Shown: positions 5,061-63,821 of the stretch, piece after piece
Layout: each line of letters opens with the position of its first letter
How positions within the stretch are numbered: the first letter of the stretch is position 1
Assembly: GCA_029861865.1 (NCBI GenBank)
Contig: JAOTYL010000002.1
Coordinates: forward strand, 434,001-498,000
Reading direction: 5' to 3'
From: Myxococcales bacterium
GTDB taxonomy: Bacteria; Myxococcota_A; Polyangia; Polyangiales; Houyiibacteriaceae
DNA length: 64,000 nucleotides
The notes under the pieces: model-generated
The model's database searches: none
What the model saw: the letters and a program-made list of their open reading frames with translations, nothing else
Told to the model about the DNA's origin: nothing
Program-made: the position numbers and the translations under genes

Positions 5061-6148
5061 TGGGGGGTTCTGCAAGGGCTGCGTTGGTGACGGGCTTTCC
5101 GGGAAGGCAATTGGCGGTGCACCTGGTGCGCGAGCTTTGCCGAGACGAGCGGCTTTCGATTCACTGTCTCGTCACGGAGAGCCAACGAGAACGTGCGCTC
5201 GCGCTCGTCGCTCAGCTGCCCGCCTCGGCGCATTCACGCATCTCGTTGCTGATCGGCGACCCACGCGCGCTCGACCTCGGGCTCAGTGGGGAAGAATTCA
5301 GGACGCTAACGGAACGGCTTGGGGTCATTCACCACTGCGCCTGCATCACAGACCCTGCTGGAACCAAAGAAGAGGGCGCGGGCAACGTAGCGGCCACGGC
5401 CGAAATCCTCGAGCTGGCCGAGAGCTCGCCCCATCTCAAGCGACTGGTGTGTTGGTCGAGCGCGATCGTTTCCGGCAATCGCGAAGGCTTCGTCATGGAG
5501 GACGACCTGAGCGAAGCCGAAGGCTTTCGAAATCCGATCGAAGAATCACTCTACAAGGTCGAGCTGATGGTCCGGGAAGCCGCCGAAGAGCTCCCCGTTG
5601 TCATCATCCGCCCAGCGCTTTTGGTGGGGGACTCGGTTACCGGGGAAGTCGAGGACCTCAACGGGCTCTATCTCCTCATCCGATTCTTGTTGAGCGCGCC
5701 CGATGACTTCCGGATCCCGGCACCCAGTCGGACAGGGGTCCGGATCAGTGCGATCCCCGTTGACTACGCCGTAAAAGCCGGGCTCCAGATCGCCACCGAC
5801 GACCGTTCGCTTGGTCGCACGTTCCACGTCGTCGACCCGAAGCCGGTCACGGTGCAGCACGCGCTCCAACTCTTTGCCGAGGCAACGGGAAAGCCGCTCC
5901 CGAAAGAGCACGACCCGCTCAACCTGGCCACGGCTCTGTTGCGAGCGCCAGGGCTCCAGCGCTTCACCCACACGACCCGCGCCTTCCTCGACCACCTCAG
6001 GGCCGACGTCGTCTACGATGACCGCAACACTCGAGAGCTCCTCCGCGGAAGCCGAATCACCTGCCCCCCACTCGACAGCTACGTGGACCTAATGGTGGAA
6101 CAGGCGAGACGCGGACCCGGCAAAGCGACTGTAACGCCGCGCCGCTAG
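5057..6148 (+). CDS. SDR-superfamily (thioester-reductase-like) NAD(P)-binding protein
   Basis: 363 aa. The Rossmann start reads ALVTGFPGRQL, a TGxPGxxL form of the nucleotide-binding loop. It is followed by IHHCACI and a CWSSAIVSGN serine region, matching the NAD_binding_4/male-sterility group of extended SDRs. The usual catalytic pattern is of the form NPYEESK; here the stretch reads NPIEESLYKVELMVREA, so both the Tyr and the Lys appear replaced (Ile and Leu). It may bind a nucleotide without the standard chemistry, or use the shifted Tyr-Lys pair. It overlaps coaE by 4 bases, and its stop overlaps the convergent porin gene by 4 bases. Confidence 0.75.
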   Translation: MMGGSARAALVTGFPGRQLAVHLVRELCRDERLSIHCLVTESQRERALALVAQLPASAHSRISLLIGDPRALDLGLSGEEFRTLTERLGVIHHCACITDPAGTKEEGAGNVAATAEILELAESSPHLKRLVCWSSAIVSGNREGFVMEDDLSEAEGFRNPIEESLYKVELMVREAAEELPVVIIRPALLVGDSVTGEVEDLNGLYLLIRFLLSAPDDFRIPAPSRTGVRISAIPVDYAVKAGLQIATDDRSLGRTFHVVDPKPVTVQHALQLFAEATGKPLPKEHDPLNLATALLRAPGLQRFTHTTRAFLDHLRADVVYDDRNTRELLRGSRITCPPLDSYVDLMVEQARRGPGKATVTPRR

Positions 6149-7737
6149 TTGTCAGTCGCAGTGTCAGTGTCAGTGCCAGTGTCAGTGTCAGCGCCAGGGC
6201 CAGTGTCAGCGTCAGCGTCAGTGCCAGCGTCAGTGCCAGCACCAGCGCCAGTGTCTCCGTTCTTCCGCTTTCGCTTCCTCTCCTTCTGCTTCTCTTGGAC
6301 CTGCTTGGCCCCCTTTGTGGCGACCGAGATTGCACCGGAAATGTAAAGGATGATGGCCGCGCGTGTCGCTTGTGTGCGTCTGTACGAAACGACGTCCGTG
6401 TTCTCGTCGAGGACCGCGGCGAGCGCGTCGCCCTTGCCAAATAGCCCGGTCGCTCCCACCGTGAACCGGTATCCCTTTGTATCGACGCCAATCGCCACGG
6501 AGGCTCCCCACATATTGACTTGGTCCGGTGTGTACTCCTGCGAAGTCTCAGGGACGTCGGGGGCCGCTGAAAAGTTCGTGAAGAGGCCACCGGCGACCAC
6601 GGCCTTACCGAACTTGTGTTCGGCCCCGATGGAGAGGTTCGGGGTCCACCGCCGCGCGATCGATGACGAGAAGTAGACCCCCGAGCGAACATCGATGTTC
6701 TCGAGCTCGGCGGGTCGCCCGAACAGCGTGCCGTCTTTCACGGGGCCGGTTACGGCGGCATCAAATGAAAGCAAGGTCTCTTCGTTGATCTGGAAACCAA
6801 AGCCTGCGCGGAGCTCGAACGGAATGGGCATTTTCGCCTTGATGCTCCCGGAGTCGAAAAGGAAGAACGTCGGTTCGTCGGGGCTGATGTCGGTGGTGAT
6901 GCGACGGAGGACATCACCCTTCTGCTTCAGCGGAATCCCTGGTGTCTGAACCATCATGCCGATCGCCCATTGGGAATTGATTTGGTGGAGCCATCCCAAA
7001 CGCGGGACGAAATGGTACGCGCGGACCCCGATCGAGCTGCTCGCCGTTACGGAGTCCCCACCCACGCGAAGACCGGTTTGCTCGTCGAAGGTGCCGCCCA
7101 GGGCAATGCCGATGTCCTCCCCGTAACCGAAGGCCTGGTCCGAAAGAAAGATTGTAAATCCGACCGCCGACTTCTTGGTCACCTCGGCCGCGAAGGAAAC
7201 ACCGTACCAGCGGGAACGGTAGTTGTTGTCGACGCGAAGATCGAGACTGAAGGTTGGATCGTTTTGGGCGGTGCCGATATTCAGTCTGTTGCGTGCGACC
7301 TCGACCGTGCTGTAGCCGACGGCAAACTGATGGTCGTCGCCGAACTTCTTGGGACCCACCTTGACTGCCGTTCCGACGAAGCGTGGCAGGGCTGACGTGC
7401 CCGTGGAGTCGAAGGTCTCGTCCCTTTGAGGCGAATCGAACGCATTCTCGATCTTGTACTTGGTGAATACGATCGAGGCGAAGCTTCCCTGGAGCTCAAA
7501 GCGTCCTCCCCGCACCAAGCCAGCGGGATTGTAGTAAGCGGCGGAAGAATCGGTGGCTACTCCGGTGAAGGCCCCGCCGAGGCCCACCGCGTGGTCGCCG
7601 ATCGGGATAGAACGGTAGTACAAAGCCTGCGCCTCGGCGCGGGTGGGCAGAGCACCAAGAACGATCGCCAATAGGAGCAGCAGCGATACCCGCGACGGCC
7701 ATCCCCCGCCCCCCCCTGGGTCCACGATCACGCACAC
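6145..7737 (-). CDS. FadL/OMPP1-type outer-membrane transport protein
   Basis: 530 aa. A signal peptide (hydrophobic LLLLLAIVLGAL, then TRAEAQA) is followed by a family-typical N-terminus: GDHAVGLGGAF, then DSSAAYYNPAG. Long beta-rich stretches follow, as in FadL/TodX porins that take up hydrophobic compounds. The start is GTG; several in-frame GTG codons between 7725 and 7737 make the exact one uncertain. The last 40 or so residues are a Thr/Asp/Gly/Ala tail made by the 6-bp repeat array at 6151-6252, which is not a normal part of the family. Substrate unknown. Confidence 0.85.
   Translation of the reverse strand: MCVIVDPGGGGGWPSRVSLLLLLAIVLGALPTRAEAQALYYRSIPIGDHAVGLGGAFTGVATDSSAAYYNPAGLVRGGRFELQGSFASIVFTKYKIENAFDSPQRDETFDSTGTSALPRFVGTAVKVGPKKFGDDHQFAVGYSTVEVARNRLNIGTAQNDPTFSLDLRVDNNYRSRWYGVSFAAEVTKKSAVGFTIFLSDQAFGYGEDIGIALGGTFDEQTGLRVGGDSVTASSSIGVRAYHFVPRLGWLHQINSQWAIGMMVQTPGIPLKQKGDVLRRITTDISPDEPTFFLFDSGSIKAKMPIPFELRAGFGFQINEETLLSFDAAVTGPVKDGTLFGRPAELENIDVRSGVYFSSSIARRWTPNLSIGAEHKFGKAVVAGGLFTNFSAAPDVPETSQEYTPDQVNMWGASVAIGVDTKGYRFTVGATGLFGKGDALAAVLDENTDVVSYRRTQATRAAIILYISGAISVATKGAKQVQEKQKERKRKRKNGDTGAGAGTDAGTDADADTGPGADTDTGTDTDTATDN
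6151..6252 (-). repeat. Hexamer tandem array A (coding, C-terminal tail)
   Basis: Seventeen consecutive 6-bp units on the plus strand, mostly GTCAGT, GCCAGT, GTCAGC and GCCAGC. On the sense strand of the porin gene this reads GRCRCT. It encodes alternating Asp/Gly and Thr/Ala up to the stop codon. It belongs to the same repeat family as the arrays at 11521, 17789, 23285, 61835 and 63789. Confidence 0.9.
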
Positions 7738-7934: not shown

Positions 7935-10900
7935 GTGGCGCGTCAGCCCTTGCTTAGAGGCTTGTTTCAGGTCGCGTTTTTTTACTTAGGCGTCGCGGCG
8001 CTGTGTGTGCCAACCAACGGCCGCGCGCAGCCCACCACGGCCTGTGACTTCATGTGCCTGGACTTTTTTCCGACCTGCAATGAGGTGACTTGCGTGATCG
8101 GCGAAGTTTGTAATGGCACGGCGGCTACCGACTGCATCTTTGGATCGCCCGACTCGGACAGCATACGAGGGCATGGCGATACCGATTGCATTTGCGGCAA
8201 TGATGGCGATGATACCATCTACGGCGGCTCGATTTTGTTTCCACTGGGCGTGGACGCCGGTGACCTGATCGAGGGCGGAGCCGGAAGTGACACGATCTTT
8301 GGCCAACTCGGCGCTGACCAGATCAACGGCAACGACGGCAACGACGTCATCGAAGGCGGCGACGGCGACGACTTCCTCTTTGGCGATGCCGACAACGACG
8401 ATATCTCAGGCGGCGATGGCAACGACACGATAACGGGCGACTCCGGCGCCGACATTCTGCGCGGCGACTCCGGGGACGATACGCTCATCGGTGGCACCGA
8501 AAACGACTTTCTGTTCGGCGGAATCGGCGCGGATAGCCTCACCGGCGGCGGCGGAGACGACAGCCTGAATGGAGAAGGAGGGAACGACCCTCAGCTGGAC
8601 GGTGGCGACGGGAACGACACAATCAGCGGCGGCCCCGGGATTGACAACGCCAATGGCGGCCCGGGGGACGACACGCTCAACGGCGGCGCGGGGGACGACA
8701 CGCTCAACGGCGGCGACGGGACCGACGTCATCAACGGCGGCGACGGCATGGACATCCTCAACGGCGGCGGTGGGCCGGACCGCGTCAACGGAGATGGTGG
8801 GGACGACTTGATCAACGGCAACGCGGATAACGACCGCCTCGATGGTGGGACCGGTATCAACACCGTGAACGGAGGCACGGGCACGGACGTCTGCCTCAAC
8901 TTCACGTTCACCGACTTCACTTGTGAGTTGTTTACGCACGCCACGCTGGATTCGTTCATTTCGTTCGTGGAGCGCCGCTCCGTCGTCGTACGATGGTCGA
9001 CGTCTTCGGAGGCGGGAACCATGGGCTTTCGGGTGCTCCGTGAAGAGGGAGGCGAATGGATGCCGATCCACGACGGCCTACTTCCGGGATTGCTAGCCTC
9101 GCCGCAAGGAGGCATCTACGACCTTCGCGACAACGGGGCGCGGCCCGGTCAACCTCAACAGTATCTCGTCATCGAAGTCGACATCCGGGGAATCGAATCG
9201 GAGCATGGACCCTTCGACGTCGTACCTGACTCCGAGGGCGAGAGCCTCCTCAGCGAAGAAGCGAGATACGGGCGCGAGCCTCATGCGACGGCTTCCGCGG
9301 GACTCGTCCAGAAGTCGCTCGAGTCTGACAAGCAGAGTGCGGGGCAACCTGTGGCGCTCTACTTCGGCGTCGAGCGCACGGGCCTCTACGCCGTCTCCGC
9401 GGCGGAGATCGCCGCTGGGCTTCGGGTGGACGAGTCGGAAGTTCAAGCCTGGATCCAGGCTGGCGAGCTTCGACTGACCGAGGGCGGAGAGAGCGTGGCC
9501 TGGACAGCCGCCGCGGACGGTTCGGAGCTGTCCTTCTTCGGCCTCGAGCGTGAAAGCCTTTACACGACGGAGCGCTTCTATCGTCTTTCGGTCGCCCGCG
9601 GTGACACGATGACCGAGCGCTCGGTGAGCCCCGATACGATCACCGATGGGCTCGTATTCGCGGACACCGTACACCTCGAGGAGAACCTCATTCAAGGCAT
9701 CCTCGTTGCGCAAGATCCCAACGAAGACTACTGGTATTGGCAGCTGGTCACCGCGAGCCCCGACATTCCGACCGACGCGGAAACGTCTTTCGCCCTCGAG
9801 GACGTCGCAGGTGGCGGTAGCCTTCGCGTGCGTCTCCACGGTGTCTCCTACGACCCGCACTCGGTCGACGTATGGGTCAACGGCACATTGCTAGGCACCA
9901 CTCGATTCCTCGGCCTTCAGGCACACGAGGCCGTGTTCGCAATCCCCGATGGCTTGCTCGACACCAACAACAGACTTCGGGTGGCGCCCAGTGAGCCCAG
10001 CGACAGCATATTCTTCCTCGACGCGGCCGATGTCACCTACATGCGTGGCTACGACACCTCGTCTGAAACGCTTCAGTTCCGCGCCGAGCAAGCCGCATCC
10101 GTGGAAATCGGCGGCCTCACAAACGGCGGTACGCGGTTCTTCGACGTGACCGACCCCCAACGGCCAGCCAAGTTGGTGGATGCCGTGATCGGAGCGTCAG
10201 GCGCTCGACTCGCGATCGAACCTGCGATCGAATACTTCGCGGTCGCACCCGGCGAGCTGCTTCGGCCGAGCTCGAGCTGGGCAGACGTCGCATCCGATCT
10301 GCGGAACGCCAACAACCGCGCCGACTACCTGATCATCGCACCGGCCAGTTTCATCGACGAGGTCGAAGAGCTTGCAACCTACCGAGAGACAGACGGGTTC
10401 ATGGTGCGAATCGTCGAGCTTCAGGACATCTTCGACGAGTTTGCCAACGGCTCCCCGAATCCGAATGCCATTCGGGAGTTCCTGCGTTTCGCGAACGAGA
10501 CTTGGACGACCTCGCCCCGCTTCGTCGTGCTCGTCGGCAAGGGGTCGTTCGATTATCGCGAGATACTCGGGCCTGCCATCAACCTATTACCGCCGATCAT
10601 GGCGCTCACCCATGCGGGGATGGCGTCGTCCGACACGAAGTACGCCGACTTCCTCGGCGACGATGGCATGCCCGACGTCGCGATCGGCCGTCTCCCCGTG
10701 ACCTCGGGTGCCGAGCTCAACACAATCGTTCGACAGATCATCGACTACGAGAACGCCTTCGACACCATTGGCAATGGCATCACCCTGTTCGCCGACGCAC
10801 CAGACCCCCAGGGTGACTTCGCCGCAATGCAAGATGACATCGCTGCCCAGCTGCCGGGCATTTGGGAGCCGACAAGCGTGTATCGCTCGCAGTTCGAAGA

Positions 10901-11528
10901 CGTGGAAGCTACGCGGGCCGCTTTCTTCGAGGCGGTGAAACGGAGCCCCCGTGTGGTCAACTACTTCGGCCACTCGGGCATGACCACGCTCGGCAAGAGA
11001 GAACCGCTTTTCGGGGTCGCCGACCTCGAAACGATGACGATCGATGAGACTCAACCGATCTTCGCCGCGATGACGTGCTTGGCATCGCGCTTCGAAGTCC
11101 CCGGCGTGATCTCCCTCGGAGAGGCCCTCCTCGTCGACGAGGAAGCTGCCATCGCAGTGTGGGGGCCCTCAGGGAACTCAGTCAACGAGTACGCGACTCT
11201 CCTGTCGAGCGCATTCCTGGACGAGCTCCATGCCGGTATCGAAACCCGGATCGGCCCCATCATCAACCGGGCGTTCAGCCAGCTGGACGGCATGGAGGAC
11301 GGTCGCGACATGGTCGAGATCTACCATCTGCTCGGTGACCCTGCGCTTCGTGTAGCCAAGGGAGCTGCGCCACCTGATGGAGCTGGCAACGATGGCGACG
11401 GCCCACAACCCCCAATCGACCAACTGACCGAGGGCGGTTGCTCGGTAGGATGGACGAACAGGAACACCGCCGGCGCAACCCTACTCCTAATCGGACTAGC
11501 CCTCCTGATCAGACGACGGCGACACTGA
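7935..11528 (+). CDS. Secreted RTX-repeat and peptidase C25 protein with MYXO-CTERM tail
   Basis: 1197 aa from GTG 7935, which has GAGGAG 8 bases upstream and gives a normal signal peptide ending near NGRAQ. An ATG at 7860 in the same frame lacks a Shine-Dalgarno sequence and would add a second hydrophobic segment. Residues about 70-320 are Gly/Asp nonapeptide repeats (GGDGNDTI type), the calcium-binding RTX fold. The C-terminal half matches peptidase family C25 (gingipain-like), with candidate catalytic His1013 in YFGHSG and Cys1048 in MTCLAS. The end has Gly-Gly-Cys1169, a hydrophobic helix and RRRRH, the MYXO-CTERM layout for sorting to the cell surface. Proteolytic activity is inferred. 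The stop lies inside a hexamer array. Confidence 0.85.
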   Translation: MARQPLLRGLFQVAFFYLGVAALCVPTNGRAQPTTACDFMCLDFFPTCNEVTCVIGEVCNGTAATDCIFGSPDSDSIRGHGDTDCICGNDGDDTIYGGSILFPLGVDAGDLIEGGAGSDTIFGQLGADQINGNDGNDVIEGGDGDDFLFGDADNDDISGGDGNDTITGDSGADILRGDSGDDTLIGGTENDFLFGGIGADSLTGGGGDDSLNGEGGNDPQLDGGDGNDTISGGPGIDNANGGPGDDTLNGGAGDDTLNGGDGTDVINGGDGMDILNGGGGPDRVNGDGGDDLINGNADNDRLDGGTGINTVNGGTGTDVCLNFTFTDFTCELFTHATLDSFISFVERRSVVVRWSTSSEAGTMGFRVLREEGGEWMPIHDGLLPGLLASPQGGIYDLRDNGARPGQPQQYLVIEVDIRGIESEHGPFDVVPDSEGESLLSEEARYGREPHATASAGLVQKSLESDKQSAGQPVALYFGVERTGLYAVSAAEIAAGLRVDESEVQAWIQAGELRLTEGGESVAWTAAADGSELSFFGLERESLYTTERFYRLSVARGDTMTERSVSPDTITDGLVFADTVHLEENLIQGILVAQDPNEDYWYWQLVTASPDIPTDAETSFALEDVAGGGSLRVRLHGVSYDPHSVDVWVNGTLLGTTRFLGLQAHEAVFAIPDGLLDTNNRLRVAPSEPSDSIFFLDAADVTYMRGYDTSSETLQFRAEQAASVEIGGLTNGGTRFFDVTDPQRPAKLVDAVIGASGARLAIEPAIEYFAVAPGELLRPSSSWADVASDLRNANNRADYLIIAPASFIDEVEELATYRETDGFMVRIVELQDIFDEFANGSPNPNAIREFLRFANETWTTSPRFVVLVGKGSFDYREILGPAINLLPPIMALTHAGMASSDTKYADFLGDDGMPDVAIGRLPVTSGAELNTIVRQIIDYENAFDTIGNGITLFADAPDPQGDFAAMQDDIAAQLPGIWEPTSVYRSQFEDVEATRAAFFEAVKRSPRVVNYFGHSGMTTLGKREPLFGVADLETMTIDETQPIFAAMTCLASRFEVPGVISLGEALLVDEEAAIAVWGPSGNSVNEYATLLSSAFLDELHAGIETRIGPIINRAFSQLDGMEDGRDMVEIYHLLGDPALRVAKGAAPPDGAGNDGDGPQPPIDQLTEGGCSVGWTNRNTAGATLLLIGLALLIRRRRH

Positions 11529-11598
11529 CACTGGCACCGTCGCTGACGCTGACACTGGCGCTGACACTGGCGCTGACACTGGCACTGTCGCTGACACT
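11521..11598 (+). repeat. Hexamer tandem array B (straddles a stop codon)
   Basis: Thirteen 6-bp units such as GACACT, GGCACT, GGCGCT and GTCGCT. The array begins 8 bases before the end of the C25 gene and supplies its TGA stop. It shares the dodecamer GGCACCGTCGCT with the array at 63789-63818. Confidence 0.9.
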
Positions 11599-11612
11599 GC
11601 TCACAAGGAGTA

Positions 11613-11746
11613 GGTGACCCGGCCCGCGGCGCGGGATGGGCAGCACAGCGATGGGGAGGAGCCCGCGTAAGGATCCATAATTATCCGCAAGGGCGACCGG
11701 GGCCCCATCGCGAGCACGCCCGTGCCGTGTCGCGGGCCGGGTCACC
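11613..11746. repeat. 134-bp element bounded by 16-bp perfect inverted repeats
   Basis: Arms at 11613-11628 (GGTGACCCGGCCCGCG) and 11731-11746 are exact reverse complements, 102 bases apart. Inside, a second exact pair (GCGATGGGG / CCCCATCGC) is nested, and near the centre GGAT and ATCC face each other. The whole could fold into a long stem or cruciform. It lies between convergent genes, so it may be a bidirectional terminator, although it has no T-run. The terminal inverted repeats also suit a small non-autonomous mobile element (MITE). No target-site duplication is obvious at the ends. Confidence 0.75.
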
Positions 11747-11758
11747 GGTTGACGGAGC

Positions 11759-17418: not shown

Positions 17419-19791
17419 TCAACGAAGCATCGATCTACACTCGGAAACGAAACGCCCCTTCCCGAGCTTCACGCAGTTCAAATAGGCCTGACGCGCGCCC
17501 TGGCGGTCGCCTCGGTCGTGGCGAGCGGCGCCGAGGGTTACCCAGGCCAGGGCATTCGCTGGATCGATTGCAGTCGCTCGTTCGGCCAGCTCGGCCGCTT
17601 CACGGGTACGTTGCCGTCCGAGCTGCAACCGTGCGAGCTCGGCCAACGCGTCACTCGCCTGCGGATCGAGCTCGATGGCCCGCCGATACGCAGCCACGGC
17701 ACGCGAACCGCGCTTCAACTGACGCGCAAGCGCGAGCTGAGCCTCATAGGTATCCTCCGCCCCGGTCTTGGCATGAACCGGAGGAGCTCCTGTCTCTGCC
17801 GCTTCCGCTGCCCCTGTCACGGCCCCTGCTTCTGTCCCTGCCGCTGCCGCTGCCTCTGTCTCTGCCCCTGTCGCTGCCTCTGTCTCTGTCCCTGCCCCTG
17901 TCTCTGTCCCTGTCACTGCCTCTGTCCCTGCCCCTGCCTCTGTCCCTTCCCCTGTCACCGCTTCACCCATTTGCTTAGAGTCTCGCGACGGCAGCAAGTA
18001 CATCAACGCCACAATTCCGAAGGCCAACAGGGCGATCCACACGAAGCGCGCCGGGCTCTGAGCTTGAGCCTCCTTGGGCACTCGCGCAGCGCCGGGAATG
18101 GTCCGTTGAGCGGTGGGGCTCGGAGCTGCCGGCTTGTCGAAGACCTCTTCGTAGGTGAGCGGCGGCGGGTCGGCTTCCGGCGGTTCGCGGTATTCGAGGA
18201 TCGCATCCCGGTGCTCTTCTTCAACGCGATCGCTCACCACGTCGATCGCCTGGGCGCGCGGAGGCGTCGACCGAACGAATGGGCCGGGGGGTGGGTCCGA
18301 GTCGATGATGGCAATCGCTTCCGTAACCTCGGGATCGTCTCGAAGCTCGTCGAGGGTTCGGTCCCACTGACCAACTTCGACTGTCTCCCGCGTCGTCTCG
18401 TCGCCGAGACTCGCTACCTCCGGAACTCGACCCGCCCAATTCAAGATCGTGCCCCCACCCCGCACGGTCTGAAACCCTGTCGGCGTATGCTTCCTGGGAC
18501 GCGCCGTGGGCGGTGGCGGGGCAGGCCCCCACCCCGCCGGGCCCGCGGTCGATCCCGGCGACGGGAGTGACTCCGGGGTCGGAGCCAAATCGGATGCGAG
18601 GCCCGAAACGGACTCGCGCTTCGGCAGCGGAGGCGGAGCCGGTACGGAGATCGGCATCGACGCCCGCTCGGAGAACGGCACCAACTCCGTCTCGGGCAAG
18701 CGGCTAGTCCCAGGGATCGCGATCGGAGTGAGCGGTGGCTTCGGGCCGGGACCCGGAAGCGTGTTAACCGGCGCTTTCGGGGGCATCGAGGAGAGCGGCA
18801 TGGGCATCTGCGCGAGTATCGGAATACTTTCCTTCACCTCGCCGACCTCGCGAATGATCCCCTCGAAGTAGAGATCGACGACTTTGCGGAGCGCTTCTAC
18901 GTGGTCGCCCCCATGCGCGCGAATGGCCTCGCCGGTCGTCCGAACGCCGTCGATCAAACGCACCATAGTGTTCTGTTCGTCGGGGGTTTCGTGGAGGCGA
19001 TCACGCAGAACATCTGCGTCGACTTCGAGCACCGCATCAAATGGGGGAAGCAATTCGGACAGACGGCTCCACTCGTCGAGCCGGCGCATGCCTTCCATCA
19101 GCAACGCCTGCGTCGTTCGGTGGACAGTGCGCTCGACCAGGCTCACTCGACAAAACTCGAGGTCGAACGTCCCGTCTCGCCAGAGCAACAATCGGTAAAC
19201 CGCGTCCTCCCCGCCGAGATCCTCGACAGCAGCGTGGATCACCGCTCCCGAATCGAAAGAGATCATCCCCTCATCGCCGACCGCCGAGGCCAGGTTCAGC
19301 ACACCCGACTTCCGGCTCACGTCGATCGTCTGAAGGAGGTCGACCACGCTCATCTCCGACAGCGACCCGCTGAACCGGGTCCGATCGTCGCCCGTTCGCT
19401 GGGCCAAACCTTCACGAGCTTGTCTAGCGAGCTCCAGGCCGACTCGCGCGATCACCTCACGGATGTAGATCGGCTTCGTGAGATAATCCTCGACCCCGAG
19501 CTCGAGCCCACGGATCTTGCTTTCGATCGACTCGTCACTCGACAAGAACATGAACGGAATCCGTGACCACTCGGGGTTCTGTCGGAGTTGCTCGACGAAT
19601 TCGAAGCCGTTCATATCGGCGAAAGCCGTGTCCGACAGAATCAGGTCCGGCTTATTGGTGTGTAGGATCTCGAAGGCCTTACCCACACTGGGACAGCCAG
19701 CCACGTTGTAACCGGCATTACGCAAGCTCACCTCCAACACCCGGAGGCTGCGGGGATCCGCGTCGACGACGAGAAGGTTTTGCTTGGTCAC
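17419..19791 (-). CDS. Receiver-DUF4388(PATAN)-TPR membrane signalling protein
   Basis: 790 aa. Residues 1-125 are a receiver domain (LLVVDADPR, phospho-acceptor in LILSDTAF, lysine in YLTKPI). A DUF4388/PATAN domain follows (FSGSLSEMSVVDLLQTID, about 140-230). After a long Pro-rich stretch there is one transmembrane helix (FVWIALLAFGIVALMYLL). Next comes a Glu/Thr/Ala/Gly linker coded by hexamer array C, then C-terminal TPR repeats. Receiver-DUF4388 proteins are common in Myxococcota. Output unknown. The start is GTG, only 19 bases from the divergent lipoprotein gene's start. Confidence 0.8.
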   Translation of the reverse strand: MTKQNLLVVDADPRSLRVLEVSLRNAGYNVAGCPSVGKAFEILHTNKPDLILSDTAFADMNGFEFVEQLRQNPEWSRIPFMFLSSDESIESKIRGLELGVEDYLTKPIYIREVIARVGLELARQAREGLAQRTGDDRTRFSGSLSEMSVVDLLQTIDVSRKSGVLNLASAVGDEGMISFDSGAVIHAAVEDLGGEDAVYRLLLWRDGTFDLEFCRVSLVERTVHRTTQALLMEGMRRLDEWSRLSELLPPFDAVLEVDADVLRDRLHETPDEQNTMVRLIDGVRTTGEAIRAHGGDHVEALRKVVDLYFEGIIREVGEVKESIPILAQMPMPLSSMPPKAPVNTLPGPGPKPPLTPIAIPGTSRLPETELVPFSERASMPISVPAPPPLPKRESVSGLASDLAPTPESLPSPGSTAGPAGWGPAPPPPTARPRKHTPTGFQTVRGGGTILNWAGRVPEVASLGDETTRETVEVGQWDRTLDELRDDPEVTEAIAIIDSDPPPGPFVRSTPPRAQAIDVVSDRVEEEHRDAILEYREPPEADPPPLTYEEVFDKPAAPSPTAQRTIPGAARVPKEAQAQSPARFVWIALLAFGIVALMYLLPSRDSKQMGEAVTGEGTEAGAGTEAVTGTETGAGTETEAATGAETEAAAAAGTEAGAVTGAAEAAETGAPPVHAKTGAEDTYEAQLALARQLKRGSRAVAAYRRAIELDPQASDALAELARLQLGRQRTREAAELAERATAIDPANALAWVTLGAARHDRGDRQGARQAYLNCVKLGKGRFVSECRSMLR
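17789..17956 (-). repeat. Hexamer tandem array C (coding, linker after a transmembrane helix)
   Basis: Twenty-eight 6-bp units, mostly NCTGYC on the plus strand, which is GRCAGN on the sense strand. They encode alternating [EGAT]-[TA] residues between the transmembrane helix and the TPR region. The reading frame of the unit differs from array A by one base. Confidence 0.9.
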
Positions 19792-23264: not shown

Positions 23265-23284
23265 CCAGCGCTGACATGGGCGCT

Positions 23285-23404
23285 GACACTGGCGCTGGCA
23301 CTGACACTGGCACTGACACTGACACTGGCACTGGCACTGACACTGACACTGGCACTGGCACTGACACTGACACTGACACTGGCACTGGCACTGGCACTGA
23401 CACT
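23285..23404 (+). repeat. Hexamer tandem array D (intergenic, 20 units)
   Basis: Twenty exact-length 6-bp units without a break. Nineteen are GACACT or GGCACT and one is GGCGCT, so almost all variation is A/G at the second base. Looser copies extend upstream to the META-lipoprotein stop codon at 23264. It reads in the same sense as that gene and ends 23 bases before the next ATG. Confidence 0.95.
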
Positions 23405-23427
23405 GAGAATATGGGAGTGACCGACTC

Positions 23428-25404: not shown

Positions 25405-27846
25405 ATGATAATCAGAGAATCCGTTCAAGTTGGTGACAAGACGATCACCATCGAGACCGGCCGTATTGCAAAACAGGCGGCTGGCTCGGTGTTGGTGAGC
25501 TGCGGCGAGACCATGGTCCTCGTCACCGTATGTGGCAACAAAGAAGCCCGGCCGGGTCAGCCGTTTTTCCCACTGACCGTCGACTACGTCGAGAAGACCT
25601 ATGCCGCCGGCAAGATCCCGGGCGGCTTCTTCAAGCGCGAAGGCAGGCTCCGCGACAACGAGGTACTGACGTCGCGGCTGATCGACCGTCCCTGCCGTCC
25701 GCTCTTCCCCGAAGGCTACATGGCCGAGACTCAGGTCATCGCCACGGTGATGTCCGCGGACGCGATCAACCCCTCGGACGTGCTGGCGATGATCGGTGCT
25801 TCGGCGGCGATTCACATCAGCCCGATTCCTTGGGCGGGTCCGATCGCTGGAGTGCGCGTGACGCGCGTAGACGGGGAATTGATCGCAAACCCGACGTACG
25901 AAGAGATTGAAAAGGGCGACTGCGAGCTGATCATCGCCGCATCCAAGGACGCCATCGTCATGGTCGAAGGCGAATCCGAAGAAATGTCCGAGGCAGACAT
26001 GGTCGCCGCCATCCAGTTCGGCCACAAAGCCGTGCAAGGAGTGCTCGAGCTCATCGAGAAGATTCGAGAGGCGGTGGGCACGGCGAAGTGGCCTTTCGAG
26101 ACTCCGCAGCGCGACAAGAAGATCGAAGCACGCGTCAAAGAGGTCGGCCTCGCCAAAATTGTCGAGGCCTGCAACATCGCGGACAAGCACCCGCGCTACG
26201 ACCGCTTCAGCGAGATCAAGAAAGAAGTCGTTGCGGATCTAGCCGAGGAGTTCCCGGACCACGAAGGTGACATCAAGGGCGCCTACGAGGCCCTCCGTTA
26301 CGACACGATGCGCGCCCAGGTGCTCGACGAGAAACGCCGGGTCGACGGTCGCGACTATAAGACCGTGCGACCGATCAGCATCGAAGTCGGTCTCTTGCCG
26401 CGTGTTCACGGCTCAGCGCTTTTCACCCGTGGTGAGACCCAGAGCATCGTGACCACCACGCTCGGTACCCGTCAGGACGAGCAGAAGATGGACGGCCTGA
26501 TCGACGACTACTGGAAGCCGTTCATGCTCCACTACAACTTCCCCCCGTACTCCGTGGGCGAGACGAAGTTCCTCCGCGGCCCCGGTCGGCGCGAAGTTGG
26601 TCACGGCAATCTCGCTGAGCGCGCGATGACGCAGCTTCTCCCCTCGCGCGAGGAGTTCCCATACACGTTGCGCATTGTCTCCGAGATTACGGAGTCGAAT
26701 GGGTCGTCGTCGATGGCCACCGTTTGCGGTGGAAGCCTTGCGATGATGGACGCGGGCATTCCGCTCAAGGCGGCCGTCGCCGGCGTCGCGATGGGTCTGA
26801 TCATGGAAGGCGCTAAGTACGCTGTTCTGACCGACATCCTGGGCGACGAGGATCACCTCGGCGACATGGACTTCAAGGTCTGCGGCACCGCCAAGGGCAT
26901 CACCGCCATCCAGATGGACATCAAGATCGCTGGCTTGAAGCGGGAGATCATGAGCGAGGCGCTCGATCAGGCGCGTGACGCCCGGCTCCACATCCTCGAG
27001 AAGATGAACGAGGTGCTGGCAACGCACCGTCCGGATCTTTCGCAGTACGCGCCGCGAATCGAGACTCTCAAGGTCAAGCCCGACCAGATCCGTGTCGTCA
27101 TCGGCCCCGGCGGCAAGATGATCAAGGCGATTACGGATCAGACAGGCGCCAAGATCGATATCTCCGACGACGGGACGATCAGCATCGCGTCACCGGATGG
27201 CGAAGCGCTCAAGAAGGCGATCGCAATCATCGAGAGCCTCACGGTCGAGCCTGAAATCGGAACCAAGTACAAGGGCGTCGTTCGACGCGTCGAGAACTAT
27301 GGTGCGTTCCTCGAGATCGCTCCAGGCAAGGACGGGCTCCTCCACATCACCGACATGGACTGGGGCTTCGTCGAAAAAGTCGCGGACGTCATGGACCTCG
27401 GCGACGAGGTCGAGGTGATGATCAGCGACATCGACCGCGAAGGCCGCATTCGGTTGTCACGCAAGGCCCTGCTCGAAAAGCCCGAAGGCTACGTCGAGCC
27501 CGAGAAGCGCGAACGCCGTGAGGGCGGCGGTGGTCGCGGGCGAGACCGGGACGGTGGTCGCGGGCGAGACCGGGACGGTGGTCGCGGGCGAGGCGGCCGT
27601 GACCGAGACCGGGGCGGCCGTGGCGGCCGAGATCGCGATCGCGGCGGTCGCGGCGGCGCCCGCGCCGGTGGACGGGATGGAGACCGCGATCGAGACCGTG
27701 ATCGTGGGCGAGACCGGGACCGTGACCGCGATCGTGATCGTGATCGGGACCGCGATCGAGACCGCGCACGAACCCAGGATCGCGACAGCGACGGTGACCG
27801 ACCCCGTGAGCGCACCCGCGAGCGCACCGGCGAACGAAACGACTAA
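25405..27846 (+). CDS. pnp: Polyribonucleotide nucleotidyltransferase with Arg/Asp/Gly-rich tail
   Basis: 813 aa. It degrades RNA from the 3' end with phosphate. Two RNase PH-like domains (the second beginning near [11 protein letters not shown]), a KH domain ([13 protein letters not shown]) and an S1 domain ([17 protein letters not shown]) occur in the usual order and end near residue 695. The remaining 110 or so residues are a low-complexity Arg/Asp/Gly tail built on GRGRDRDGG-like units, longer than in most PNPases. Such tails often bind RNA or partner proteins. The stop overlaps the dut start (TAATG). Confidence 0.97.
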
Positions 27847-61455: not shown

Positions 61456-63030
61456 TCAGCGGGCGATCGTGATCTCGATCGAGGGTCCGCGCGCCTGCAC
61501 TCGGAAGGCGGGATGGCGCCCCGCGACGAAGCGGACCGTGAGCTCGGAGAAGTCCCCCCGGTTGAGGATCCCTGCGTGCTCCACATCCGGGTGTGCGGTG
61601 GCGATGGGGCCTGCACGAGAAAGGGACAGGCTTCCGGGGATCATCACAGAAAAGCCGTCATCCTCGACAAGTCCATCCATGGTGGTCACCGGGTTGCTCA
61701 TTCGAAGCACGTACTTTTCGCCGCCCTGCACTTCGTCGGCGCCAAAGGCCATCCCCCGCACCCGCTCAGGCGGCGAAGGAACCGTCGCCGACCCTGCGGC
61801 TGAGTCCACCGCGGCCGCTGCCTCCACCACTATCGCTGTCTCTGCCGCTGACGCTGTCCCTGCCGCTGACGCTGTCCCTGCCACTGTCGCTGTCCCTGCC
61901 ACTGCCGCTGTCTCTGCCGCTGTCTCTGCCGCTGTCCCTGTCCCGGTCCCTGCCGTTGCCCAAAGGTAGATCCCCCAACCCGCCATCACGATGCCGAAAG
62001 CGAGGGCGGCGGTGATCAGGTACCGCCTCCGAGCGCGCCGCGAATTCTTCAGATGCTCACGAGCGGCCTGGCTACGCGGAACTTGCCTACGACGCGGTTT
62101 GTCATCGAGGCGGCCTCGCAAAGCCTCCACGAATCGCGCCAGCACCGTCCCGCTCCGACGCGTGCTCGCCGCAATCGATGGGATCATGTCGTTCTTGATG
62201 GCCCTGCCCATGCTCGCGATTGAGCTCGACAGCCGGTCGGATGCCGCGCGCGCATAGTCGCGAAGGCGCACCGCGATGGTTTTGTCGAGCGACCCCTCGG
62301 CGCTGAGGTCGTAGCGGACAATGCGCGGCGTATCGTGGATCCGAGCGCTCGAAGTGCGTCGGTTCGGCCGCGAGGCCCTTGGCGCCTCATCAGGGAGCGT
62401 GTCCCTGTCTGAATCTTGGGGCACGGAGTCGGCTGACTCCTCGGTCTCGTAGCCGATGTTGAGTACGAGTTTTGGCGTCCTCTCGTCGAATTTGAGCTCG
62501 ACCGCCTCGAGGTGTCCGCGGCGACCTGCGGTCTCGTTTTCTACCGCGCTTCCAATGGCAAGGAAGGGAAGACTCTGCTCGACCGCAAGCTCGGTGTCGG
62601 TTTCAGAAGTGAGCTCGGCGACTATCGGCGAACCGACACCGTCTAACCTCAGTCGAACAGACGGTGCCTCAGCCGAGCTGCGACCCCAGCGCTGGATGAG
62701 CGCCTCGATCCGAGTTTGATCCTCGTCCGAGAGTCGAGTGAATCGAATTCCGAACTCTCCAACCTGGGGGCCGCTGTCGTGCGCCCAGACGACCCTGCCC
62801 ACCATTTGAATCGGTGCCCCACCGATCGGGCTCTCGAGCTGGCACCGAAGCGTCGACCCGACCTGCGGAAGGACCGACGCACGCATCGAGATCCCGCCTG
62901 GGCCGACATTGAGGGCGTCCGCTTCGAACTCCTCGTCATGGAAACCTTCCGGGTAGAGCCTGATCAGAACCTCGTCGAGCGGCACGCGCGGAGGTCGAGG
63001 CGCTTGGTAATGACCGACGGATGTATTCAT
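61456..63030 (-). CDS. PilZ-domain membrane protein with AMIN-like C-terminus
   Basis: 524 aa from ATG 63030 (GAAGAGG upstream). The N-terminal PilZ-like domain (PRVPLDEVLIRL, DALNVGPGGISMRA) may bind cyclic-di-GMP, though the usual RxxxR is only partly met. A long Ser/Arg-rich stretch leads to one transmembrane helix (YLITAALAFGIVMAGWGIYLW). Directly after it is an Ala/Thr/Gly linker made by hexamer array E. The end (YVLRMSNPVTTMDGL, ELTVRFVAG) resembles an AMIN domain. Convergent with the HtrA gene, 5 bases apart. Confidence 0.7.
   Translation of the reverse strand: MNTSVGHYQAPRPPRVPLDEVLIRLYPEGFHDEEFEADALNVGPGGISMRASVLPQVGSTLRCQLESPIGGAPIQMVGRVVWAHDSGPQVGEFGIRFTRLSDEDQTRIEALIQRWGRSSAEAPSVRLRLDGVGSPIVAELTSETDTELAVEQSLPFLAIGSAVENETAGRRGHLEAVELKFDERTPKLVLNIGYETEESADSVPQDSDRDTLPDEAPRASRPNRRTSSARIHDTPRIVRYDLSAEGSLDKTIAVRLRDYARAASDRLSSSIASMGRAIKNDMIPSIAASTRRSGTVLARFVEALRGRLDDKPRRRQVPRSQAAREHLKNSRRARRRYLITAALAFGIVMAGWGIYLWATAGTGTGTAAETAAETAAVAGTATVAGTASAAGTASAAETAIVVEAAAAVDSAAGSATVPSPPERVRGMAFGADEVQGGEKYVLRMSNPVTTMDGLVEDDGFSVMIPGSLSLSRAGPIATAHPDVEHAGILNRGDFSELTVRFVAGRHPAFRVQARGPSIEITIAR
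61835..61960 (-). repeat. Hexamer tandem array E (coding, after a transmembrane helix)
   Basis: Twenty-one 6-bp units, mostly GCTGTC, TCTGCC and CCTGCC on the plus strand (GRCAGN on the sense strand). They encode Ala/Thr/Gly/Glu just after the transmembrane helix of the PilZ protein, the same place as array C in another protein. Confidence 0.88.
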
Positions 63031-63788: not shown

Positions 63789-63818
63789 GTCGCTGGCACC
63801 GTCGCTGGCACTGACACT
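63789..63818 (+). repeat. Hexamer tandem array F (short, directly after a stop codon)
   Basis: Five units, GTCGCT, GGCACC, GTCGCT, GGCACT and GACACT. It begins the base after the FHA stop codon and shares GGCACCGTCGCT with array B. Confidence 0.85.
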
Positions 63819-63821
63819 GTC

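What the first reader, a model, noticed from the sequence alone, without database searches (positions are those of the whole stretch)
23285..23404. A dispersed family of 6-bp tandem arrays with fixed orientation
Six arrays (6151-6252, 11521-11598, 17789-17956, 23285-23404, 61835-61960, 63789-63818) share a 6-bp unit G-R-C-R/A plus two bases. All six read in the same sense as the gene they follow or lie in. Two dialects exist: GRCRCT (A, B, D, F) and GRCAGN (C, E). Six such arrays in 64 kb, coding and non-coding, are not expected by chance and point to a repeat family with a DNA- or RNA-level role or spread. What they do (transcript end, protein binding, slippage) is unknown.
Basis: partly seen in the sequence, partly recalled or inferred. 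Interest (0 to 1): 0.85.

Follow-up and report, generated by a model that had tools for sequence, protein, structure and literature searches.

The report
Hexamer arrays tied to mobile four-helix genes
The scattered 6-base repeat arrays in this uncultured myxobacterium are real and numerous, and the same arrays bracket a tiny mobile element carrying 'four-helix bundle' (23S-rRNA-intervening-sequence) genes; that gene is paired with 6-8-base repeat arrays in other bacteria too, which gives a testable source for a long-known but unexplained class of bacterial short tandem repeats.

Summary
In detail: six arrays of one 6-bp unit, best written CTGNCR, lie in the window. The 648-kb contig has 34 such arrays (0-1 in shuffles), and the genome has 571 four-unit matches against 0 for the reversed pattern. 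'Fixed orientation' is wrong: arrays crowd at gene 3' ends in either sense (11 same, 9 opposite), and the 'second dialect' (C, E) is the same unit antisense inside genes.

The arrays are nearly genus-restricted, and the same arrays flank a ~0.84-kb element: two convergent four-helix-bundle genes (PF05635/TIGR02436), each behind a long hairpin. The array is co-directional with the first gene in all 17 copies checked across 11 genomes. Two copies are missing, and a third is reduced to a bare four-unit array, in a sister species (~88% identity) that has no such gene and only decayed arrays.

The link is general. Outside the genus, 31 of 47 IVP loci in Myxococcota, and 15 of 15 read on plasmids, have 6-8-bp arrays close by, with different units. 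One is a 23S rRNA intervening sequence.

Best reading: the window's arrays are solo remnants or companions of a mobile IVP element. The association is shown; causation and the movement mechanism are inferred.

The parts
6150..6255 (-). Array A: CTGNCR array read on the - strand, forming the last ~35 codons of the OMPP1/FadL-like gene 6145-7731(-)
   Evidence: the G018 orthologue also has an array here
11521..11599 (+). Array B: starts over the stop codon of the C25-peptidase/RTX gene 7935-11528(+); the G018 orthologue has a degenerate array
11603..11758 (+). R156: 156-bp near-perfect palindrome (MITE-like) 4 bp 3' of array B; same array-R156 order elsewhere in G000, including after an IVP element
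   Evidence: DNA fold -53.6 kcal/mol
17790..17958 (+). Array C: CTGYCN units, antisense, inside gene 17419-19725(-) (response regulator/DUF4388/TPR protein); codes a low-complexity linker
23269..23406 (+). Array D (the finding): 22 units between the stop of the META/NlpE gene (23264) and the luciferase-like gene (23428). G018 has 3-4 degenerate units here
61784..61960 (+). Array E: antisense array inside gene 61456-63030(-) (PilZ-domain protein)
63789..63821 (+). Array F: short array filling the gap between two convergent stop codons

Best explanation
The arrays are the repeat part of a small mobile element family. The complete form, absent from the window but present elsewhere in the same genome, is: CTGRCR array - short inverted end (ACTTGGTCATCG-like) - long hairpin carrying a ribosome-binding site - IVP1 gene -> <- IVP2 gene - second hairpin and inverted end - CTGRCR array in the same direction, often followed by the palindrome R156. 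IVP1 and IVP2 are four-helix-bundle proteins of the 23S_rRNA_IVP/S23 family (Avd fold). Element and arrays settle where they do little harm, mainly at gene 3' ends. Because the flanking arrays are direct repeats, recombination between them can delete the gene pair and leave a solo array, as a solo LTR is left; arrays then change by internal multi-unit duplication and point changes, and decay once the genome loses its IVP genes. SHOWN: the arrays, their genus restriction, the fixed anatomy, presence/absence between sister species, and the IVP-array association in other lineages. INFERRED: that the element moves with its arrays, that solo arrays are left by deletion, that IVP proteins help make or maintain arrays, and that the six window arrays arose this way.
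For: Restriction: of 18 other species of the genus, 17 have the arrays; other genera of the family and order have 0-3 matches, at the level of the reversed-pattern control. Anatomy: identical in IVP elements of 11 same-genus genomes, with the array co-directional with IVP1 in all 14 copies plus three further G000 copies. Intragenomic IVP1 copies in G000 are 94-100% identical to the query copy, against 67-84% in other species. Insertion polymorphism: C6:495 kb has array+element (1.16 kb) in G000 against 13 bp in G018; at C6:465 kb G018 keeps only decayed array and an element-end-like TAGATCACACTGA; at C2:26 kb G018 has a solo 4-unit array in the same direction between matching flanks. Co-loss: G018 and G010 have no IVP gene and 15 and 0 array matches; Spearman IVP count vs array count 0.47, p 0.04. 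Generality: in 20-kb stretches around IVP genes of other genomes of the order, hexamer arrays fill 10.3% of bases within 600 bp of IVP genes against 0.57% elsewhere; 31 of 47 IVP loci outside the genus have 5-9-bp arrays within 400 bp, density 9-10% within 300 bp against 0.3-0.5% beyond 500 bp; 15 of 15 plasmid IVP loci read, both sides in 13. Gene-content changes between G000 and G018 fall at array junctions: 14 observed, 2.8 expected.
Against: Most arrays, including all six here, have no IVP gene or remnant nearby (tblastn of the contig found none). G004 and G005 have arrays but no IVP match, possibly because multi-copy elements are lost in short-read bins. In other lineages the flanking arrays are mostly inverted, so the solo-array route fits only the window's genus. 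No transposase was found, no target-site duplication was seen, and no movement has been watched. The IVP-array correlation within the genus is modest and not corrected for phylogeny. The breakpoint test counts some junctions more than once per event and includes the IVP insertions themselves.
Confidence: 0.6

Rival explanations
1. Landing pads: the arrays arise first by another route, and IVP elements home into them by homologous or site-specific recombination because they are safe sites. Arrays are targets, not products.
For: Arrays far outnumber elements in G000; fixed element orientation relative to the array is what recombination between matching arms would give; a solo array exists at an orthologous empty site in G018; R156 also sits at array ends.
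Against: Genomes without IVP genes have no (G010) or decayed (G018) arrays. At C6:495 kb the empty site has no array. In other lineages IVP genes are bracketed by arrays of many different units, mostly inverted, which a shared landing-pad sequence does not explain.
Confidence: 0.27
2. Independent slippage arrays kept by selection for a local DNA- or RNA-level role at gene ends (termination, insulation, protein binding); the IVP link is secondary.
For: Preference for 3' ends and convergent gaps; the core bases stay conserved while two positions vary.
Against: Orientation is random with respect to the gene; some arrays lie after an ordinary terminator-like hairpin (C8:388,690); array presence and size differ freely between sister species; adjacent units are no more alike than shuffled, so simple unit-by-unit slippage is not the pattern.
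Confidence: 0.08
3. DNA uptake sequences: the motif accumulates through biased natural transformation.
For: Genus-specific motif, many copies, gene-end location, both orientations.
Against: Single or double units outside arrays are not enriched (CTGRCRCTG 20, against 43 for the reversed pattern).
Confidence: 0.02
4. Arrays are written by a reverse transcriptase from an RNA template (DGR-like or telomerase-like); the variable positions are the two adenines of a CTGACA template and the IVP fold is that of the DGR cofactor Avd.
For: Variable positions 4 and 6 match template adenines in this genus; the IVP1 model matches Avd (4dwl, 8ub7; TM about 0.85); no sign of copying between arrays.
Against: RVT_1 is found in only 2 of 19 genomes of the genus; in some other lineages the unit keeps adenines invariant (e.g. 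NGACGC in G044).
Confidence: 0.03

Closest known systems
Dispersed short tandemly repeated sequences: TAACTGA heptamers of Beggiatoaceae, cyanobacteria and Bacteroidetes (PMC4679880); GGGNATC heptamers of Xanthomonas and Nostoc (PMC4692102); STRR heptamers of heterocystous cyanobacteria (own knowledge)
   Same: Many short arrays of one unit, mostly intergenic, on both strands, in particular lineages; PMC4679880 states that no transmission mechanism is evident
   Different: Hexamer CTGNCR here, found in one myxobacterial genus; here the arrays are linked to a mobile IVP element, which neither paper mentions (term searches)
23S rRNA intervening sequence (IVS) with its S23/IVP open reading frame
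   Same: IVP gene of the same family (PF05635, E 1e-17) behind a long hairpin; an IVS inside Azospirillum lipoferum 23S rRNA is bracketed by inverted heptamer arrays
   Different: Here two convergent IVP genes in intergenic hexamer arrays, not in rRNA; arrays direct rather than inverted
Diversity-generating retroelement cofactor Avd (PDB 4dwl, 8ub7)
   Same: Same four-helix-bundle fold, TM about 0.85
   Different: No reverse transcriptase in the elements; RVT_1 absent from 17 of 19 genomes; template repeat and variable protein were not searched for
Fold-back transposons and MITEs
   Same: Single-IVP elements in other lineages end in inverted arrays of short direct repeats; R156 is a MITE-like palindrome
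   Different: No transposase or typical MITE termini found; the resemblance is in form only and was not tested further

Membership tests
Dispersed short tandem repeat (STRR-like) family | Many short arrays of one 6-8-bp unit, far above chance, dispersed and mainly intergenic | tested here: met
Dispersed short tandem repeat (STRR-like) family | Unit specific to a lineage | tested here: met
   17 of 18 congeners have it; other genera at control level
23S_rRNA_IVP / TIGR02436 protein family (the two genes of the full element) | Match above the curated cut-off and four-helix-bundle fold | tested here: met
   PF05635 64.7 and 50.3 bits against cut-off 33.8; TIGR02436; IVP1 model pLDDT 93, best matches 2rld and 2gsc
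23S rRNA IVS | Located inside the 23S rRNA gene | tested here: not met
   The elements of this genus lie in intergenic arrays; the Azospirillum comparison locus is in 23S rRNA
Mobile element | Filled and empty orthologous sites; multiple near-identical copies in one genome | tested here: met
Mobile element (cut-and-paste or HUH type) | Recognisable transposase in the element; target-site duplication | tested here: not met
   Only IVP genes lie between the arrays; Y1_Tnp absent from array-rich G000, G002 and G015; no duplication seen at the three sites inspected by eye
Window arrays as derivatives of the IVP element | IVP genes or their hairpins at or near the array | tested here: not met
   tblastn of the contig found no IVP gene; array B alone carries the element-associated palindrome R156
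DNA uptake sequence | Excess of dispersed single copies | tested here: not met
Diversity-generating retroelement | Reverse transcriptase of the system present | tested here: not met

The most novel reading that the evidence does not exclude
Four-helix-bundle (IVP/S23) genes define a widespread class of minimal mobile elements whose ends are arrays of 6-8-bp tandem repeats and which make or maintain those arrays. The dispersed hexamer, heptamer and octamer families of bacteria (STRR, TAACTGA, GGGNATC and the arrays of this window) and the 23S rRNA intervening sequences would then be outcomes of one system.
Probability: 0.42. Interest if true: 0.95.

Novelty: new variant of a known kind. Interest (0 to 1): 0.82.

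Why it matters
Dispersed short tandem repeat families have been reported in several bacterial lineages without a known source, and the S23/IVP protein family has solved structures but, as far as I know, no known function. Finding that IVP genes sit between such arrays in Myxococcota and on plasmids of cyanobacteria, a gemmatimonad and an alphaproteobacterium (there inside 23S rRNA) ties the two puzzles together and makes both testable: remove the IVP gene and watch the arrays. It also suggests why assembly contigs of this genus often end in such arrays, and marks arrays as sites of gene gain, loss and inversion.

Tried and rejected
Fixed orientation: refuted. Uptake sequences: no single-copy excess. 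HUH/Y1 transposase or reverse transcriptase as the array-maker: distribution does not match. Array-to-array copying: shared unit words are no longer than in shuffles. Simple unit slippage: adjacent units no more alike than shuffled; only within-array multi-unit duplications, e.g. lag 30 bp. Leading/lagging-strand rule: array directions are mixed along the single-contig relatives G014 and G015. Known RNA family: no Rfam match on R156, the hairpins or the arrays. Reversed-profile array counts were a poor control, since they match the arrays themselves; shuffles were used instead. A genome contigs protein scan served mainly to name G018. The first IVP1 query found nothing on plasmids; a more typical IVP found 30 records. 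A batch fold of R156 failed on length; its fold is. Eight literature queries found no description of an IVP-array link in the open-licence library; subscription journals and preprints are not covered.

Full report
WHAT WAS CHECKED. The window is C8:434001-498000 of a 4.2-Mb, 23-contig genome. All six arrays exist. A profile of the unit (CTGNCR) finds 34 arrays of at least 25 bits in the 648-kb contig, against 0-1 in five dinucleotide shuffles. Genome-wide there are 571 exact four-unit matches and none to the reversed pattern.

ORIENTATION AND POSITION. Using one register, C and E are the same unit as the others but antisense to the genes they lie in, so the 'two dialects' are one. In the contig, 20 intergenic arrays lie within 30 bp of a gene 3' end: 11 with the gene, 9 against it. 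Nine of 28 intergenic arrays sit between convergent genes, against 40 of 333 intergenic gaps. Five arrays lie inside coding sequence, two of them at the C-terminus. Gene calls come from a home-made codon-model caller, so individual boundaries are approximate.

RESTRICTION AND TURNOVER. Seventeen of 18 other species of the genus carry the arrays; G010 has none and G018 has few. Other genera of the family and order are at the level of the reversed-pattern control. Along ~355 kb of collinear sequence at ~88% identity, arrays of G000 face short, degenerate arrays or none in G018. At array D, G018 keeps three or four worn units. Four other species (G002, G005, G006, G011) have an array of the opposite direction in the same gap but at another point, with conserved flanks and different lengths. 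Arrays therefore come, go and change length.

ARRAY INTERIOR. In 698 units, C-T-G-x-C-x is conserved and positions 4 and 6 vary. Neighbouring units are no more alike than shuffled units, but words of several units recur inside arrays, notably at 30 bp. No long unit words are shared between arrays beyond shuffles. This fits internal multi-unit duplication and gives no sign of copying between arrays.

REARRANGEMENT. Junctions that hold an array carry gene-content changes between G000 and G018 far more often than others: 14 observed, 2.8 expected (some events touch several junctions and the IVP insertions are included, so the p-value of 2e-8 is optimistic). One small gene between inverted arrays, at C8:564-565 kb, is inverted relative to G018 (read by eye).

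THE MOBILE ELEMENT. Two G000-only inserts bounded by arrays, at C6:465 and C6:495 kb, encode a pair of convergent four-helix-bundle proteins. A further copy of the pair (L163, C2:26 kb) matches PF05635 with 64.7 and 50.3 bits (cut-off 33.8) and TIGR02436. The AlphaFold2 model of IVP1 (pLDDT 93) matches S23-family structures 2rld and 2gsc and the DGR cofactor Avd. The same anatomy recurs in 11 genomes of the genus: array, inverted end, hairpin with ribosome-binding site, IVP1, IVP2 on the other strand, hairpin, inverted end, array (a few copies are cut by contig ends or lack part of an end). In all 14 copies of that set, and in three more from G000 (L217, L228, L229), the array runs with IVP1 on every side where it is present. 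A 156-bp palindrome, R156, lies just 3' of the array in most places where both occur; one copy follows array B in the window at 11603-11758. Fixed array direction and several near-identical intragenomic copies fit a mobile unit.

FILLED AND EMPTY SITES. At C6:495 kb G018 has 13 bp where G000 has 1.16 kb. At C6:465 kb G018 keeps worn arrays and a sequence resembling the element's right end, which suggests loss in G018. At C2:26 kb G018 has only four units, in the same direction, between matching flanks. The last case is what deletion between two direct arrays would leave, but insertion into a pre-existing array would look the same.

GENERALITY. In stretches of up to 20 kb around 20 IVP loci of other genomes of the order, hexamer arrays of other units fill 10.3% of bases within 600 bp of the gene and 0.57% elsewhere. 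Across 47 IVP loci outside the genus, 31 have a 5-9-bp array within 400 bp; density falls from 9-10% within 300 bp to 0.3-0.5% beyond 500 bp. On plasmids, 15 IVP loci were read (13 cyanobacterial, one Gemmatirosa, one Azospirillum): all have a 6-8-bp array beside the gene, 13 on both sides, mostly as inverted complements, e.g. AGGGAAC/CTGTTCC in Nostoc and TCAGAAT/ATTCTGA in Trichormus. The Azospirillum locus lies inside the 23S rRNA gene, which is the classical intervening sequence. The window's genus is unusual in having direct, not inverted, arrays around a gene pair.

WHAT IS SHOWN AND WHAT IS INFERRED. Shown: the arrays, their restriction, the fixed anatomy, presence/absence between sister species, and the IVP-array association in several phyla. 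Inferred: that the element moves as a unit with its arrays; that solo arrays, including the six in the window, are leftovers or companions; that IVP proteins help make or keep arrays. The main gaps are that no window array has IVP remnants, and that G004 and G005 have arrays but no IVP match. The landing-pad model, in which arrays come first, is the serious rival.

NOVELTY. Dispersed short repeat families and the IVS/S23 protein are both known. The two papers found on such repeats report no evident transmission mechanism (PMC4679880) or no general association with mobile elements (PMC4692102), and term searches in them find no mention of this protein. No paper found in the open library joins the two. 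I therefore rate it a new variant of a known kind, with a substantial chance that a wider class lies behind it.

Noticed in passing
window 11603-11758; also G000 C6:418952-419109, C6:420841-420999 and others: R156, a 156-bp near-perfect palindrome with ends GGTGACC...GGTCACC, usually just 3' of a CTGRCR array; also present in G018. No Rfam match.
   Followed up: partly
G000 C8:564156-565122 (outside the window): A small gene (looks NUDIX-like by eye) between inverted arrays is inverted relative to G018: a likely array-mediated inversion.
   Followed up: partly
G000 C8:382632-383518 (outside the window): A ~0.75-kb segment with one open frame between inverted arrays; G018 has only ~18 bp there. 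Gene not identified by search.
   Followed up: no
G000 C8 and G018, dispersed: Another palindromic motif, AAAGGGGACTGTCCCCTTT, is over-represented; in G018 one copy sits where G000 has an array (C6:484 kb).
   Followed up: no
window 27528-27766: Arg/Asp/Gly-rich 6-bp-periodic coding repeat in the tail of polynucleotide phosphorylase; a different repeat, not of this family.
   Followed up: partly
L267 (Anabaena sp. 90), L268 (Pseudanabaena), L278 (Picosynechococcus) plasmids: Array-bracketed IVP genes lie between cas or cmr genes, i.e. inserted inside CRISPR-Cas operons.
   Followed up: no
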